Source of the DNA: Ciceribacter sichuanensis
GTDB lineage: Bacteria; Pseudomonadota; Alphaproteobacteria; Rhizobiales; Rhizobiaceae
Direction of reading: 5' to 3'
Length of the DNA: 64,000 nt
NCBI RefSeq assembly: GCF_024055605.1
Contig: NZ_JAMXLX010000004.1
Coordinates: forward strand, 310,001 to 374,000
Below are positions 58,459-63,992 of the stretch, piece by piece; within the stretch, counting starts at the first letter, position 1; the number at the start of each line of letters is the position of its first letter. Below the pieces are notes generated by a model that saw only the letters and a program-made list of their open reading frames with translations, did no database searches and was not told the DNA's origin. The position numbers and the translations under genes were made by a program.

Positions 58459-58768
58459 TTTTGCGTATCTACGTTTGAATGAATACAATAACACGTGACC
58501 CACCCCGGCGATATGGGGGTCGAAATCGCATGAAATTGCAAGATGTCGGGGGAGTGAAAGATCATTTGTCCGCAATGTTTTGCTGTGGATCTTCCGACAT
58601 CGCACCTGCCCGCGCCGCGATAGTTCGTCAGATTGCCGACGGAAGGAGGCAACTCGGCGCAGTCGCCTTGTGTGAAGGTCTTCTCTTTTGAATGGGGCTG
58701 GAAACCGGCCGTGAAGCCCGCTAAGACGAAAGCCGCTGCTTGTGTCTTGCGTTGGAGGGCTTTTGCCT
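58459..58768. other. Intergenic region between the ArsR and alpha/beta-hydrolase genes
   Basis: About 310 bases carrying the upstream regions of two divergent genes. An A/T-rich stretch at about 58460-58495 (with GTAT and ATAC near its ends) is a plausible ArsR operator and promoter. A 53-70 residue forward frame is open (to 58691) but has no convincing features. Confidence 0.4.
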
Positions 58769-60076
58769 TTGGTATGCGCCGAACCTGATATCGGAACTCG
58801 ACGCGAGTTCCTCCGCTACGTCGGCAAGGTGGCCCGCAGCCTTTGCGTGCTGTCGCTCGTGCTGCCGGGGCTGGCGACCTGCGCCGGCCGTCCCATCGGT
58901 GTCATGGAGCCGGTTGGCAAGATGGGGGATGGCGCAACCCGGGTGGACCTCATTGCGGCGACGACCCGAGCGCCCGCCGCCGACAAGGCGATCCTCTTTA
59001 CCGGCGAGCGCGGCAGTGGTCTGATGCTCGATGCGGTCACAATCTCCATTCCGTCCGATGGCAAGCGCGAAATCGGTCAGGTGCAATGGCCGAAAAAGCT
59101 TCCACCGAATCTCGAAAAGGATTTCGCGACGGTTGCCGTCGAGCCAATCGAGACGAAACAGGAAGGCGTCAAGTGGCTTGCCGGACACGTGCGGAAGAGC
59201 CGTCGCGTGCTGGTCTTCGTCCATGGCTTCAACAACCTGTATGAGGACGCGGTTTACCGCTTCGCGCAGATTGTCCATGATTCCAAGGCCGATGTCGTGC
59301 CGGTGGTGTTCACCTGGCCGTCACGCGGTTCCGTTTTCGATTATGCCTATGACAAGGAGAGCACCAATTACTCCCGCGATGCGCTCGAGGATCTGCTGAC
59401 CCAGATCGCCCGCAATCCTGCTGTGGGAGAGGTGACCGTCATGGCCCATTCCATGGGCACCTGGCTTGCAGTGGAATCCCTTCGCCAGATGGCGATCCGC
59501 AACGGCCGCATCGATCCGAAGATCAGCAATGTCATTCTTGCTGCCCCGGATCTGGATGTCGATGTCTTCGCCCAGCAATACCGCAGCTTTGGCACCAAGC
59601 CGCCGCATTTCACGCTCTTTGTTTCGCGTGACGACCGCGCTCTTACCCTTTCGAAGCGTATTTCCGGCAACGTGGAGCGTCTCGGCCGCATCGATCCTGC
59701 GGCCGAGCCCTATCGCAGCGAACTGGAAAAGGCGGGCATCACCGTGCTGGATCTGACCAAGCTGAAATCCGGTGACAAGCTCAATCACGGCAAGTTTGCC
59801 GAAAGCCCGGAAGTCGTGCGCCTGATCGGTGATCGCCTCATTGCCGGCCAGGCGGTGACGGAATCCAATATCGGCCTTGGCGAGAGCCTGGGGGCGGTGG
59901 CAATCGGGGCAACGAGCACTGTCGGGCAGGCGGCAAGCTCGGTGATTTCGGCTCCGATTGCGATCTTCGATCCGCGCACCCGTCGGAACTATGGTCAGCA
60001 ATTGCTGCTGCTCGGCGACTCCGCCGGCAATACCGTGGGGGCCGTCGGTGACAGTCTGGGAACGACGGCGAAGTGA
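58769..60076 (+). CDS. Exported alpha/beta hydrolase (DUF900 family)
   Basis: A 435-residue alpha/beta hydrolase. The oxyanion region is VLVFVHGFNNLYEDAVYR and the nucleophile elbow is AHSMGTW; the following LAAPDLDVD holds the acidic residue region. The N-terminus has TRREFLRY, a possible twin-arginine signal, then a hydrophobic stretch ending LATC (Cys38), a near-lipobox. I use TTG at 58769, nine bases after GGAGGG; a GTG at 58742 gives a longer frame. An export or lipoprotein fate is therefore possible. The C-terminal 90 residues are Gly/Ala/Ser-rich and probably flexible. The substrate is unknown. It ends four bases before the convergent biotinyl-like gene. Confidence 0.8.
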   Translation: MVCAEPDIGTRREFLRYVGKVARSLCVLSLVLPGLATCAGRPIGVMEPVGKMGDGATRVDLIAATTRAPAADKAILFTGERGSGLMLDAVTISIPSDGKREIGQVQWPKKLPPNLEKDFATVAVEPIETKQEGVKWLAGHVRKSRRVLVFVHGFNNLYEDAVYRFAQIVHDSKADVVPVVFTWPSRGSVFDYAYDKESTNYSRDALEDLLTQIARNPAVGEVTVMAHSMGTWLAVESLRQMAIRNGRIDPKISNVILAAPDLDVDVFAQQYRSFGTKPPHFTLFVSRDDRALTLSKRISGNVERLGRIDPAAEPYRSELEKAGITVLDLTKLKSGDKLNHGKFAESPEVVRLIGDRLIAGQAVTESNIGLGESLGAVAIGATSTVGQAASSVISAPIAIFDPRTRRNYGQQLLLLGDSAGNTVGAVGDSLGTTAK

Positions 60077-60080
60077 CGGA

Positions 60081-60482
60081 TCAGCGCCCTGCGGGGTGAA
60101 AACGGAAGAGCGGCTTGCCGTAATCGGCAAGCGCGCCGTCGCCGACCAACTGTTCGGCAAGAACGCCATCCTGTGGCGCAAGAACCGGACGTAGCAGCAT
60201 CTCGATCTGCAGATAACCGATCATCTCGCCCTTACGAACCAGACGCGGCAACTCGGCCGGCTCTCGGGTGTCGGGATGCCCCGAACGAAAGATACCGATA
60301 AAGGGCGCCGGGATTTCGATGGTCTGGCGAGGAGGGGTGGGCTCCTCGTGCCGGACGCGGCCGATCTCGCTGATCCGGCCGTTGCTGGCCAGTATGTGCC
60401 GTGTGTCGTCCTCGTATTCGAATTCGGCGATGCCGTATTGTTCGAGAAGCCTGAGGGCTGACTGTAGCCACGCGTCGTTCAT
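60081..60482 (-). CDS. Biotinyl/lipoyl-domain-like protein lacking the modified lysine
   Basis: A 133-residue protein. The C-terminal 65 residues align with a biotinyl domain: [21 protein letters not shown] and DYGKPLFRF match the hammerhead around the biotin site and its closing strand. Aligned with AccB in this window ([12 protein letters not shown]), the biotinyl lysine is replaced by Met95, so it cannot be biotinylated in the usual way. The N-terminal half is novel. The ATG overlaps the accC stop by four bases (ATGA), so it is translated with accC. It may be a structural or regulatory subunit, or a decayed carrier. No published function is known to me. Confidence 0.7.
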
Positions 60483-61840
60483 CGGTTCTGCCTCCCGTAG
60501 CCTTCGGCGAGCCGCCGCTCGAGGTGATGGATATCGAAGCCGCCGGCGACGATGCCCGGCTCATCGAGAAGAGCCTGGTGCAGCGCGATTGTCGTGTCCG
60601 GTCCGACAATCACCGTTTCGGACAGTGCGCGCCGCATGCGGGAAAGCGCGATCTCCCGTGTGGGACCATGGGCGATCAGCTTGGCGATCAGCGAATCGTA
60701 ATGCGGCGGGATCGTGTAGCCGGGATAAAGATGTGTATCCATCCGCACGCCGGGACCTCCCGGCGCGATGAAGCGGGACACCTGGCCGGGTGAGGGGGTG
60801 AACTTGAAGGGGTGCTCGGCATTGATGCGGCATTCGATGGCATGGCCGGAGAAAAACACGTCCTCCTGCTTCACCTGAAGCGGTTCGCCCATCGCGATCC
60901 TCAATTGCTCGCGGACGATATCGATGCCGGTGATTTCCTCCGTCACGGGATGTTCGACCTGGACCCGCGTATTCATCTCGATGAAATAGAAGCCACCGTT
61001 CTCATACAGGAACTCGAAGGTGCCAGCACCGCGATAGCCGATGGCGATGCAGGCCTCTGCACAGTGCCTGCCGATCGCATCGATGGCCCCGGCATCGATG
61101 CCGGGAGGAGGAGCTTCCTCGATCAGTTTCTGGTGACGGCGCTGCGTCGAGCAGTCGCGCCCGCCGAGATGGATGGCATGGCCATGCGCATCGGCCAGAA
61201 CCTGGATCTCGACATGGCGCGGAAATTCAAGGAACCGTTCCAGATAGACTTCCGGATTACCGAAGGCGCGGCCGGCTTCCTCGCGGGCCATCTGTACCGC
61301 CGAAACCAGCGCCGCCGGTTCGCGTACAATCCGCATGCCGCGCCCGCCGCCTCCGCCCGATGCCTTGACGATCAGCGGATAGCCGACCTCGTCGCCAATG
61401 GCTGCAATCGCCGCCTGATCGTCGGGCAGTGCGCTGTCCGGACCGGGCACACAGGGAACACCGGCTGCGATCATCGCCCGCTTGGCGGACACCTTGTCGC
61501 CCATCATGCGGATCGCGGCTGCAGGTGGTCCGACAAAGGTTATTCCCGCCGATTCGACCATGGCGGCGAAGCGGGCGTTTTCGGAGAGAAAGCCATAGCC
61601 GGGATGGATGGCCTCCGCGCCGGTCAGTTTGGCTGCAAGCAGAATCTCGTCGATGTCGAGATAGCTGCGGGCGGCCGGAGCCGGTCCGATGCAGAGCGCC
61701 TGATCGGCGAGCTGGACGTGGCGCAGATCCCGGTCGGCCTCGGAATGGATGGCGATCGTCCTGAGGCCGAGGTCGCGGCAGGCTCTGAGAATACGCAGGG
61801 CGATTTCCCCGCGATTGGCGATCAGGACGCTGTCGAACAT
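60479..61840 (-). CDS. accC: Biotin carboxylase subunit (AccC-like, pxp-linked)
   Basis: A 453-residue ATP-grasp biotin carboxylase. Family features are [24 protein letters not shown], the glycine-rich ATP loop [14 protein letters not shown], and [18 protein letters not shown] with [16 protein letters not shown]. It carboxylates biotin on AccB using bicarbonate and ATP. It lies directly downstream of accB (four bases between them) and of pxpA, in a cluster with 5-oxoprolinase genes, so it is probably a second, specialised copy rather than the housekeeping fatty-acid enzyme. The substrate of the complex is not known. Confidence 0.92.
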
Positions 61841-61844
61841 CGGG

Positions 61845-62309
61845 TCAGTCCGCGATCAAGGTGATGAGGGGTGTCCCTGCGGTCACCGGCTGGCCGTCCT
61901 CGATGAGGATATGGCCGATGCGTCCGCCAAGGGGGGCCTCGACAGGGTTCAGCATCTTCATCGCCTCGATCAGCGCCAGCGTCTGGCCTTCCTCTATGAT
62001 ATCGCCTTCCTTGGCGTAAGGCTCGGCGCCCGGTGCCGGCGCGCGGTAGAAGGTGCCGGGCAGGCCTGCGACCACCACCGTCTCCACACTGTCTTCGACC
62101 TCCGGCAGGGCCAGAAGCGAAGCAATCTCGGCGGCGGCCATTGCTTCCGGCGATTCGCTCCGCGCAGTGGCCGGGATGACGGATCCTCCACCGGCCCGGC
62201 CTGCAGTCTTTGACAGGCGGATACGCATGCCGTTTTCCGAGACTTCAAGTTCGTTCAGCGACGAATCCTGCAGCATTTCCATAAGTTTGGCGATCGTGGC
62301 CAGATCCAT
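61845..62309 (-). CDS. accB: Biotin carboxyl carrier protein (AccB-like, pxp-linked)
   Basis: A 154-residue carrier. The biotin-attachment motif is [14 protein letters not shown] with the biotinyl Lys118, and the domain closes with [33 protein letters not shown] linker segment precedes it. The protein is short like other AccB copies in 5-oxoproline clusters. It follows pxpA by nine bases and is followed by accC, so the three form one operon with the degenerate biotinyl protein. Confidence 0.9.
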
Positions 62310-62318
62310 GCGATGTCC

Positions 62319-63083
62319 TCAGTGCAGGAAGTTGCGGATGGTGATACCGGCATCTTCCAGTCCGGCGCGCACCTTTGCGGCAATGCCGACGGCAGACGGC
62401 GTGTCGCTATGCACGCAGATCGAATCGATCGGCGTCACGATGGAGCGTCCGGTGATCGTTTCGATCGCGCCGTTCCGGACCATGCGCGCCACCCGTTCGG
62501 CAGCCGCTGCCGCATCGTGGATGACCGCGCCCGGCTTGCTGCGATGAACAAGAAAGCCTTCGTCCGTATAGGCCCGGTCGGCAAAGATCTCGGACCGGCA
62601 GGAAAGCCCCATTTCCCGTGCCAGCCGTTCCTGATGACCAAGCGCGATGGTGAGGCAGACGAGCTTCGGATCGACCGCCTTGATCGCGTTGTTGACGGCT
62701 TGCGCAATGCTCTCGTCCTGTTGGGTCAGGTTGCCAAGCGCGCCATGGGCTTTCACATGGGTGATCGGATGGCCGGCATAGGTCGCCAGAGCCTGAGCCG
62801 CGCCGATCTGGTAGGCGACCAGCCGCTCGATCTCTCCGGCAGAAAAGGGAATGTTGCGCCGCCCGAAGCCCCAGAGATCGGGAAAGCCGGGGTGGGCACC
62901 GACCGCCACGCCTTTCTCCTTCGCCAGCGAAAAGGTCTGCGTCATGATTTCGGGATCGCCCGCATGCAGTCCGCAGGCTATGTTGGCGGAACTGACGATC
63001 GACAGCATTGCTGCGTCGTCGCCCATCCTATAGGCGCCGAAGCCTTCGCCCATGTCCGAGTTGAGATCGACGCTGAGGCTCAT
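62319..63083 (-). CDS. pxpA: 5-oxoprolinase subunit A (LamB/YcsF family)
   Basis: A 254-residue protein of the LamB/YcsF family, one of three subunits of the prokaryotic ATP-dependent 5-oxoprolinase that opens 5-oxoproline to glutamate. It starts SLSVDLNSDMGEGFG and contains SSANIACGLHAGDP, AHPGFPDLWGFGRR and HVKAHGALGN, which are family signatures. The ATG at 63083 follows GGGAGC. It heads the reverse-strand operon with accB, accC and the biotinyl-like gene, and is divergent from pxpB. The association with a biotin carboxylase is common in Proteobacteria. Confidence 0.93.
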   Translation of the reverse strand: MSLSVDLNSDMGEGFGAYRMGDDAAMLSIVSSANIACGLHAGDPEIMTQTFSLAKEKGVAVGAHPGFPDLWGFGRRNIPFSAGEIERLVAYQIGAAQALATYAGHPITHVKAHGALGNLTQQDESIAQAVNNAIKAVDPKLVCLTIALGHQERLAREMGLSCRSEIFADRAYTDEGFLVHRSKPGAVIHDAAAAAERVARMVRNGAIETITGRSIVTPIDSICVHSDTPSAVGIAAKVRAGLEDAGITIRNFLH

Positions 63084-63115
63084 GTCTTTGCTCCCGTGTG
63101 TTCGGTCGACCAATT

Positions 63116-63188
63116 CTAGAGCATAATCCGACCGGAGTGAAACGAGGATCGGTAAGATTATGCTTAAAAAATAAGGTATTAGAGCGCT
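63116..63188. repeat. Dispersed palindromic intergenic repeat
   Basis: Nine-base arms AGCATAATC (63120-63128) and GATTATGCT (63156-63164) surround a core with ACCGGAGTGAAA. An A/T-rich tail follows, ending near TATTAGAGCG. The core matches the fragment at 14950-14970, and the stem-plus-tail layout matches the reverse-oriented copy at 46863-46930. It is in the divergent region between pxpA and pxpB. Confidence 0.6.
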
Positions 63189-63311
63189 GCTACGAATTAT
63201 TCGGATCAAAGCGTACTCTAAAGAGAGCTTCAAGGCACAGACAATGGCGGCTGCGAAGAAATGCTTGGGGTCTCTACAGGCTTCTGATATATCACATTCG
63301 ACGAGGTTATC

Positions 63312-63992
63312 ATGACGGTCAGCATAAGTGGGGATGGCGGCAATCCGAGAGTGAGCGCGGAAGGTGCTGGCGCTCTGTTGCTCGATGTCGCCGACGCTGT
63401 CTTCGACCAGTCGCGACAAGAGCGCATCTGGACGCTGGCCGAGGCGCTGAAGGGACTTGTCGGCGTTCTCGAGACAGCGCCGGGCATGAACAACCTCATG
63501 GTCGTCTTCGATCCGTTGCGCCTCGATCCGGATGTGCTGCAGGCGAAGCTTCTTGCCGGCTGGGAAAAGGCCGAAGCCGGTCACTCCCGCGCGCGTCTGG
63601 TGGAGATTTCCGTCGTCTACGGCGGTCCGGGCGGTGGCGATCTCGCTGAAGTCGCCGAGGCCAAGGGGATGACGCCCTGGGCGTTGGTCGAACTTCACGC
63701 TGCTCCGGTCTACTCCGTGGCCGCGGTGGGTGCCATGCCGGGCTTCGTCTATCTGTCAGGGCTCGATCCGAAGCTGGCGATACCGCGCCGGGCCGTGCCG
63801 CGCATGGGCGTTCCCGAGGGTTCGGTGATTATCGGCGGCGCGCAGGCCGGCATCATGCCGCTCACCGCGCCTTCCGGTTGGCACATTCTCGGCCACACGG
63901 ATTTCCATCTTTTCGATGCCTCCCGTGAACAGCCGGCGGCACTTCGTTCCGGCGACAAGATCCGTTTCGTGCCCAGGGAGATCCTCGCGTGA
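63312..63992 (+). CDS. pxpB: 5-oxoprolinase subunit B (KipI family)
   Basis: A 226-residue cyclophilin-like-fold protein of the KipI family. The conserved blocks are VYGGPGGGDLAEVAE, GAMPGFVYLSGLDPKLAIPRRAVPRMGVPEGSV and GGAQAGIMPLTAPSGWHILGHT. With PxpA and PxpC it hydrolyses 5-oxoproline. It is divergent from pxpA across 228 bases. Its TGA stop overlaps a GTG that begins the next gene (GTGA), so PxpC is translated by coupling. Confidence 0.93.
   Translation: MTVSISGDGGNPRVSAEGAGALLLDVADAVFDQSRQERIWTLAEALKGLVGVLETAPGMNNLMVVFDPLRLDPDVLQAKLLAGWEKAEAGHSRARLVEISVVYGGPGGGDLAEVAEAKGMTPWALVELHAAPVYSVAAVGAMPGFVYLSGLDPKLAIPRRAVPRMGVPEGSVIIGGAQAGIMPLTAPSGWHILGHTDFHLFDASREQPAALRSGDKIRFVPREILA

What the first reader, a model, noticed from the sequence alone, without database searches (positions are those of the whole stretch)
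60081..63083. Biotinyl-like protein without its lysine, coupled to accB-accC and pxpA
The protein keeps the fold pattern of a biotin domain, but Met95 replaces the biotinyl lysine, and its start overlaps the accC stop. A catalytically dead carrier maintained in an operon with an intact carrier suggests a structural, inhibitory or substrate-binding subunit of an uncharacterised carboxylase related to 5-oxoproline use. I regard this as the best candidate for undescribed biology here.
Basis: partly seen in the sequence, partly recalled or inferred. Interest (0 to 1): 0.65.

Follow-up and report, generated by a model that had tools for sequence, protein, structure and literature searches.

The report
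Lysine-less biotin-carrier twin beside PxpABC
A small bacterial protein that looks like a biotin carrier but cannot carry biotin is kept, next to a working carrier, in one group of little-studied carboxylase gene clusters, and probably helps hold that enzyme together.

Summary
P0001 (60081-60482, minus strand) is a full-length BCCP paralogue: N-terminal domain plus biotinyl domain. Met95 stands where AccB has its biotinyl lysine, and its ATG overlaps the accC stop (ATGA). It is not a decayed copy. I collected 42 lysine-less loci (one more was found later), mostly Rhizobiaceae and other Hyphomicrobiales, plus Burkholderia and Pseudomonas plasmids; 39 of the 42 also hold a lysine-bearing carrier. 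The fair test is a search with PxpC alone, blind to this gene: 19 hits in 18 of 122 family genomes at E <= 1e-65, and all 19 loci hold a lysine-less gene plus a lysine-bearing AccB. In a PxpC tree these loci form one branch (SH-aLRT 99). Other pxp loci with accC have one carrier, lacking the N-terminal domain in 26 of 28. Most likely the protein is a non-catalytic assembly or docking subunit of a PxpBC-type carboxylase, like plant BADC proteins. The complex, the role and the substrate are inferred, not shown. 5-oxoproline is unproven: PxpC falls below the 5-oxoprolinase equivalog cut-off. I found no description in the open-licence papers searched. New variant of a known kind.

The parts
60081..60482 (-). 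Lysine-less BCCP-like protein (BCLP, P0001, 133 aa)
   Evidence: ORF; homology to AccB over both domains; family of lysine-less relatives
60198..60200 (-). Codon of Met95, in the column of the biotinyl lysine
   Evidence: Alignment columns; numbering
60479..60482 (-). ATGA overlap of accC stop and BCLP start, with GGGAGG 8 nt upstream
   Evidence: Sequence
60479..61840 (-). accC, biotin carboxylase with intact motifs
   Evidence: NCBIfam TIGR00514 685.7 bits, above cut-off; [22 protein letters not shown][LVI]QVEH conserved in the 29 of 29 accC genes of the lysine-less loci
61845..62309 (-). accB, biotin carboxyl carrier with EAMKM
   Evidence: TIGR00531 115.5 bits, just over cut-off 115.2
62319..63083 (-). 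pxpA (LamB/YcsF family)
   Evidence: PF03746 E 3.9e-95; NF003814 364.5 bits over cut-off 226
63312..63992 (+). pxpB (carboxyltransferase subdomains C and D), divergent; pxpC follows past the window end (G000:C24:373989-374990)
   Evidence: PF02682 E 4.7e-61, TIGR00370 over cut-off; pxpC PF02626 and TIGR00724, place
63113..63141 (-). Weak promoter-like site upstream of pxpA
   Evidence: 9 of 12 matches; 2 such sites found in the stretch against 0.7 expected

Best explanation
P0001 is a dedicated non-catalytic subunit of a multi-subunit biotin carboxylase made of AccC (biotin carboxylase), AccB (biotinylated carrier) and PxpB-PxpC (urea-carboxylase-type carboxyltransferase), working with the hydrolase-like PxpA. 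It arose as a paralogue of the carrier and lost the biotinyl lysine, but kept the N-terminal domain and the beta-sandwich with a remodelled thumb region. I think it pairs with AccB and/or docks on AccC and PxpBC, fixing assembly and the number of biotins per complex, as plant BADC proteins are proposed to do for chloroplast acetyl-CoA carboxylase. Shown: the gene set, the loss of lysine, its conservation, a single origin (moderate support) and the tie to one PxpC branch. Inferred: the complex, the role, and that the enzyme carboxylates an amide or lactam nitrogen before PxpA acts.
For: Homology over the whole AccB length: hhalign 99.4%, 132 columns. The N-terminal domain is present in 42 of 42 lysine-less proteins and 39 of 39 lysine-bearing partners, but missing in 26 of 28 single carriers of other pxp loci; exceptions L040 and the contig-truncated L195 (of 36 other lysine hits, 7 without pxp genes and one lipoyl-E2-like hit in L142 were set aside). 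Lysine-bearing carrier in the same locus 39 of 42; pxpA 41, pxpC 40, pxpB 39, accC 29 of 42. Test not selecting on the carrier: the PxpC hits at E <= 1e-65 lie in 19 of 19 cases in loci with both genes (loci). PxpC tree: these loci are one side of a branch, SH-aLRT 99. Own signature: G63 42/42, H69 32/42, P70 34/42, a Gly at column 94 32/42, G122 36/42. dN/dS 0.156. Papers: an AF2 model of E. coli Acc places the AccB N-terminal domain on AccC and the thumb on AccA and AccC (PMC10863985, passages); BADCs lack AMKL and are proposed as assembly 'glue' (PMC11926652, passages).
Against: No interaction or activity data. Three of 42 loci have no lysine-bearing carrier nearby (L194 at a contig end, L196, L216), and 13 of 42 have no accC hit, so a fixed AccB-AccC-BCLP complex is not always locally encoded. 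The coevolution test was fragile: partial correlations with PxpC 0.45, AccC 0.33, AccB 0.19 fell to 0.15, 0.23, 0.17 once near copies were removed. The structure prediction failed (pLDDT 49.6). The family diverges fast, with long branches, and its single origin has only SH-aLRT 79. PMC10863985 (passage) cites the thumb as a mark of malonyl-CoA-making enzymes only, which a thumb-bearing carrier pair beside PxpBC does not fit neatly. The same facts fit an inhibitor.
Confidence: 0.55

Rival explanations
2. Substrate-side adaptor: the lysine-less hairpin sits in or near the PxpC carboxyltransferase pocket and positions the substrate or the AccB carrier; AccB and AccC are secondary partners.
For: PxpA (41/42) and PxpC (40/42) are its most constant neighbours, above accC (29/42). 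It occurs with PxpBCA without AccB or AccC in the fetched stretch in G084 and G878.
Against: The lysine column is hypervariable (12 residue types), unlike a substrate-binding site.
Confidence: 0.15
3. A regulator with no place in the enzyme, such as a BirA or PII decoy.
For: BCCP is bound by BirA (AF2 model, PMC10863985, passages) and by PII proteins (PMC5080355, abstract start in a search listing).
Against: Strict linkage to one carboxyltransferase branch; no collected copy keeps the Met-Lys of the biotin ligase target motif.
Confidence: 0.07
4. Decayed pseudogene of accB.
For: The lysine is lost and branches are long.
Against: Open frame, SD-like site, dN/dS 0.156, a lysine-less copy in 19 of 19 loci found through PxpC, and partner genes conserved.
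Confidence: 0.02

Closest known systems
Plant BADC proteins (biotin attachment domain-containing; chloroplast heteromeric acetyl-CoA carboxylase)
   Same: BCCP paralogue without the biotinylation motif, coexisting with an intact BCCP and a biotin carboxylase (PMC11926652, passages).
   Different: Bacterial; operon-encoded; tied to the PxpBC urea-carboxylase-type carboxyltransferase, not to a plastid acetyl-CoA carboxylase. Common descent with BADC not tested.
AccB / BCCP (TIGR00531, PF00364)
   Same: N-terminal domain and biotinyl beta-sandwich, ungapped through the lysine hairpin.
   Different: No biotinyl lysine, no EAMKM; 17.8 bits against a 115.2 cut-off.
PxpABC 5-oxoprolinase
   Same: PxpA, PxpB and PxpC homologues are present.
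   Different: Carries AccB, AccC and BCLP; PxpC below the equivalog cut-off. 46 of 76 surveyed pxpA loci have no accC or carrier hit in the fetched stretch.
Urea carboxylase (TIGR02712)
   Same: Same three activities: BC, BCCP, and a CT homologous to PxpB plus PxpC (PMC3199775 passages and section 8).
   Different: One polypeptide there; separate genes plus an extra lysine-less carrier and PxpA here.
Single-carrier pxp-acc loci (e.g. G000:C2, L080)
   Same: pxpA, accC and one biotin carrier, nearly all with a pxpC hit and many with a pxpB hit.
   Different: No lysine-less partner; carrier without the N-terminal domain in 26 of 28, in some (L080 among them) in one open frame with accC; different PxpC branches.

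Membership tests
AccB / BCCP | Biotinylated lysine in E-x-M-K-M | tested here: not met
   Met95 in the lysine column; lysine-less also in the copies of all 19 loci found through PxpC
AccB / BCCP | N-terminal domain plus biotinyl beta-sandwich | tested here: met
   hhalign 99.4% over 132 columns; profile matches both parts of E. coli BCCP 4hr7_B. By sequence only; the structure prediction was poor
AccB / BCCP | Curated model score | tested here: not met
   TIGR00531 17.8 vs 115.2 bits; PF00364 12.8 vs 22.1
BADC | BCCP paralogue without the biotinylation motif, alongside an intact BCCP | tested here: met
   39 of 42 loci hold both
BADC | Binds BCCP and BC and affects carboxylase assembly | not testable with these tools
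   No complex could be predicted or assayed here
BADC | Member of the plastid acetyl-CoA carboxylase; descent from plant BADC lineage | not tested
   Bacterial genes linked to PxpBC; no plant BADC sequence was compared
PxpABC 5-oxoprolinase | PxpA, PxpB, PxpC homologues present | tested here: met
PxpABC 5-oxoprolinase | PxpC equivalog score (NF045499) | tested here: not met
   297.8 vs 500 bits
PxpABC 5-oxoprolinase | Hydrolysis of 5-oxoproline | not testable with these tools
   Needs an assay
Urea carboxylase | Full-length single-chain model TIGR02712 | tested here: not met
   PxpC 166.5 bits and AccC 459.8 bits against 1303.85

The most novel reading that the evidence does not exclude
A bacterial six-subunit biotin carboxylase (AccB, a lysine-less AccB twin, AccC, PxpB, PxpC, PxpA) that carboxylates the nitrogen of a lactam or amide so that PxpA can open it. 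The lysine-less twin is an obligate assembly subunit, an independent bacterial counterpart of plant BADC, and in some lineages it lets the system borrow the fatty-acid AccC.
Probability: 0.35. Interest if true: 0.78.

Novelty: new variant of a known kind. Interest (0 to 1): 0.6.

Why it matters
Whether lysine-less BCCP twins are inhibitors or assembly factors is argued over for plants (PMC11926652). A compact bacterial operon with both twins makes the question testable by simple genetics and reconstitution. It also marks one branch of PxpABC-like systems as a likely biotin-dependent carboxylase, so the labels '5-oxoprolinase' and 'acetyl-CoA carboxylase' seen on such genes in public records may mislead.

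Tried and rejected
Pseudogene or decay: rejected on conservation, selection and linkage. A lysine elsewhere in the hairpin: motif strings show none at or beside the lysine column in the lysine-less copies, though a few have Lys further along (e.g. L026 CLKAV, L041 CLKAV). Structure prediction of P0001 with the one relative used: mean pLDDT 49.6, pTM 0.37; no fold search was run on it. Coevolution of pairwise distances: suggestive, then fragile when near copies were removed; not used. Class-wide profile search: flooded by true AccB (263 of 337 genomes at 1e-8); of its 30 fetched loci, 29 carry Lys and one is the window. The single genome-contig scan confirmed only R. daejeonense. PHROGs: no match. 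No terminator-like site was found in 59800-63600. Literature: searches showed no paper on a lysine-less carrier in pxp loci; for most papers I saw only the listing. I saw passages in PMC11926652, PMC13274462, PMC12344293, PMC3199775 (plus its section 8), PMC11077971 and PMC10863985. Subscription journals are mostly missing from the library.

Full report
What is there. On the minus strand, pxpA, accB, accC and P0001 are packed with gaps of 9 nt, 4 nt and a 4-nt ATGA overlap. pxpB and pxpC lie divergently, followed beyond the window by a proline-racemase-family gene (343 bits to a trans-3-hydroxyproline dehydratase model, cut-off 550). The window sits in a 5.48-Mb genome, close to Rhizobium daejeonense, where the gene is 85% identical and the order is the same.

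Is P0001 a biotin-carrier relative? Single-sequence scans are weak (Pfam E 0.11, NCBIfam E 0.0024, both below cut-off). Profile against profile is clear: 99.4% probability over 132 columns including the N-terminal domain, and the family profile matches both halves of E. coli BCCP 4hr7_B. The alignment is ungapped across the hairpin: [14 protein letters not shown] against [14 protein letters not shown].

Is the lysine loss conserved? In the order-wide search 18 of 297 genomes matched: 11 hold a lysine-less copy, and the matches in the other 7 were lysine-bearing carriers. In the phylum sample 23 of 397 matched: 10 lysine-less, 13 with Lys. In the family sample 17 of 121 matched and all 17 have a lysine-less copy; this is a lower bound, because G1054 was found only through PxpC. 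Of 152 plasmid records that matched I fetched 12: nine are lysine-less, three (L040, L043, L044) carry Lys. In all I collected 42 lysine-less loci; one genome gave two, and L133 was dropped as a copy of L216. The lysine column holds P 17, G 5, H 4, E 3, A 2, M 2, L 2, F 2, N 2, S 1, D 1, Q 1. This count cannot itself show that Lys is always absent, since the loci were sorted by it, and the partner carriers were likewise sorted as lysine-bearing. The fair test is PxpC: searched without any carrier, the window PxpC gave 19 hits in 18 of 122 family genomes at E <= 1e-65, and all 19 loci hold a lysine-less gene and a lysine-bearing AccB (loci). The genome sample is nearly that; the cut-off was my choice and weaker hits were not followed. 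No collected locus has two lysine-bearing carriers except L142, whose second hit looks like a lipoyl E2.

Where it does and does not occur. In a census of 76 pxpA loci from 61 of 120 order genomes: 46 have neither accC nor carrier, 26 have accC with a lysine carrier, 3 have accC plus both carriers, and 1 has the lysine-less gene without AccB or AccC. Stretches were mostly about 14.7 kb and some were cut by contig ends, so absences are local. Of the 42 lysine-less loci, 39 have a lysine-bearing carrier, 41 pxpA, 40 pxpC, 39 pxpB and 29 accC. Where accC is missing locally, as in G223, the genome's only AccC hits are one AccC elsewhere and one in a 1193-aa frame, so another AccC would have to serve; that is inference. 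Exceptions: L042 is a Bradyrhizobium plasmid stretch with both carriers around an annotated 171-bp biotin-carboxylase fragment and no pxp hit. L040, a Lactiplantibacillus plasmid module, has one lysine carrier with an N-terminal domain and no lysine-less gene. L195 has an N-terminal-domain carrier beside pxp genes but its contig ends there.

Origin. With the motif columns left out, the 42 lysine-less proteins are one side of a branch among 118 carriers, SH-aLRT 79, with many long branches. In the PxpC tree (101 rows) the 39 PxpC from these loci are one side of a branch, SH-aLRT 99. Both trees were quick searches. A single origin together with one carboxyltransferase branch is likely but, for the carrier itself, only moderately supported.

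How it may work. AccC motifs are intact in 29 of 29 loci that have it and AccB keeps EAMKM, so a biotin carboxylase half-reaction is likely. PxpC and PxpB match urea-carboxylase parts. An AF2 study of E. coli places the AccB N-terminal domain on AccC and the thumb on AccA and AccC, and gives AccB4C2A2D2 as the accepted stoichiometry (PMC10863985, passages). In Chloroflexus the fused BCCP's beta-hairpin is needed for the tetramer (PMC11077971, passages). P0001 keeps the N-terminal domain and, in the thumb region, a common His-Pro (H69 32/42, P70 34/42). I therefore favour an assembly or docking subunit. Plant BADC proteins are the precedent: no AMKL motif, proposed first as inhibitors, then as 'glue' (PMC11926652, passages).

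Against my reading. No binding data exist; coevolution numbers were fragile; the structure model failed; an inhibitor fits most of the same facts; three loci lack a lysine carrier and 13 lack accC. The thumb is cited as a mark of malonyl-CoA-making enzymes (PMC10863985), which I cannot reconcile yet. The substrate is unknown. 5-oxoproline is possible, but PxpC is below the equivalog cut-off and this genome has a second pxp locus of the single-carrier type (L080).

Literature. The 2017 paper on the prokaryotic 5-oxoprolinase is not held and was not read. PMC3199775 section 8 reported the two split urea-carboxyltransferase genes as unstudied in 2011. I found no description of the lysine-less gene in searches, within an open-licence library.

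Noticed in passing
G000:C2:32700-47400 (L080): The same genome holds a second pxpABC locus with one lysine carrier (EAMKMET type) in one open frame with accC, from a different PxpC branch.
   Followed up: partly
L035:7020-8060 (just past the window end): Proline-racemase-family gene after pxpC; relatives also neighbour the module in L024, L205, L206, L212, L213 and L041, hinting at a cyclic amino-acid substrate.
   Followed up: partly
L036, L038, L039, L046, L047: Modules sit beside nac, an aminotransferase, an SDR and amino-acid ABC transporter genes, and in some an RraA-like aldolase, hinting at a nitrogen-regulated catabolic pathway.
   Followed up: no
L042:5377-6366: Bradyrhizobium plasmid with both carriers flanking an annotated 171-bp biotin-carboxylase fragment and no pxp genes; looks like a decayed module.
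   Followed up: no
L037: A Pseudomonas aeruginosa megaplasmid (pCF39S) carries the six-gene module.
   Followed up: no
L040:7753-8541: A Lactiplantibacillus plasmid module has a 'putative hydro-lyase' between accC and pxpA and only one, lysine-bearing, carrier.
   Followed up: no
L117, L122, L129 and similar loci: A large group of pxp loci has a short carrier with EVMK[ST]F between pxpA and accC, without the N-terminal domain.
   Followed up: partly
window 58742-60076: Convergent neighbour: an alpha/beta hydrolase of the DUF900 family (PF05990).
   Followed up: no
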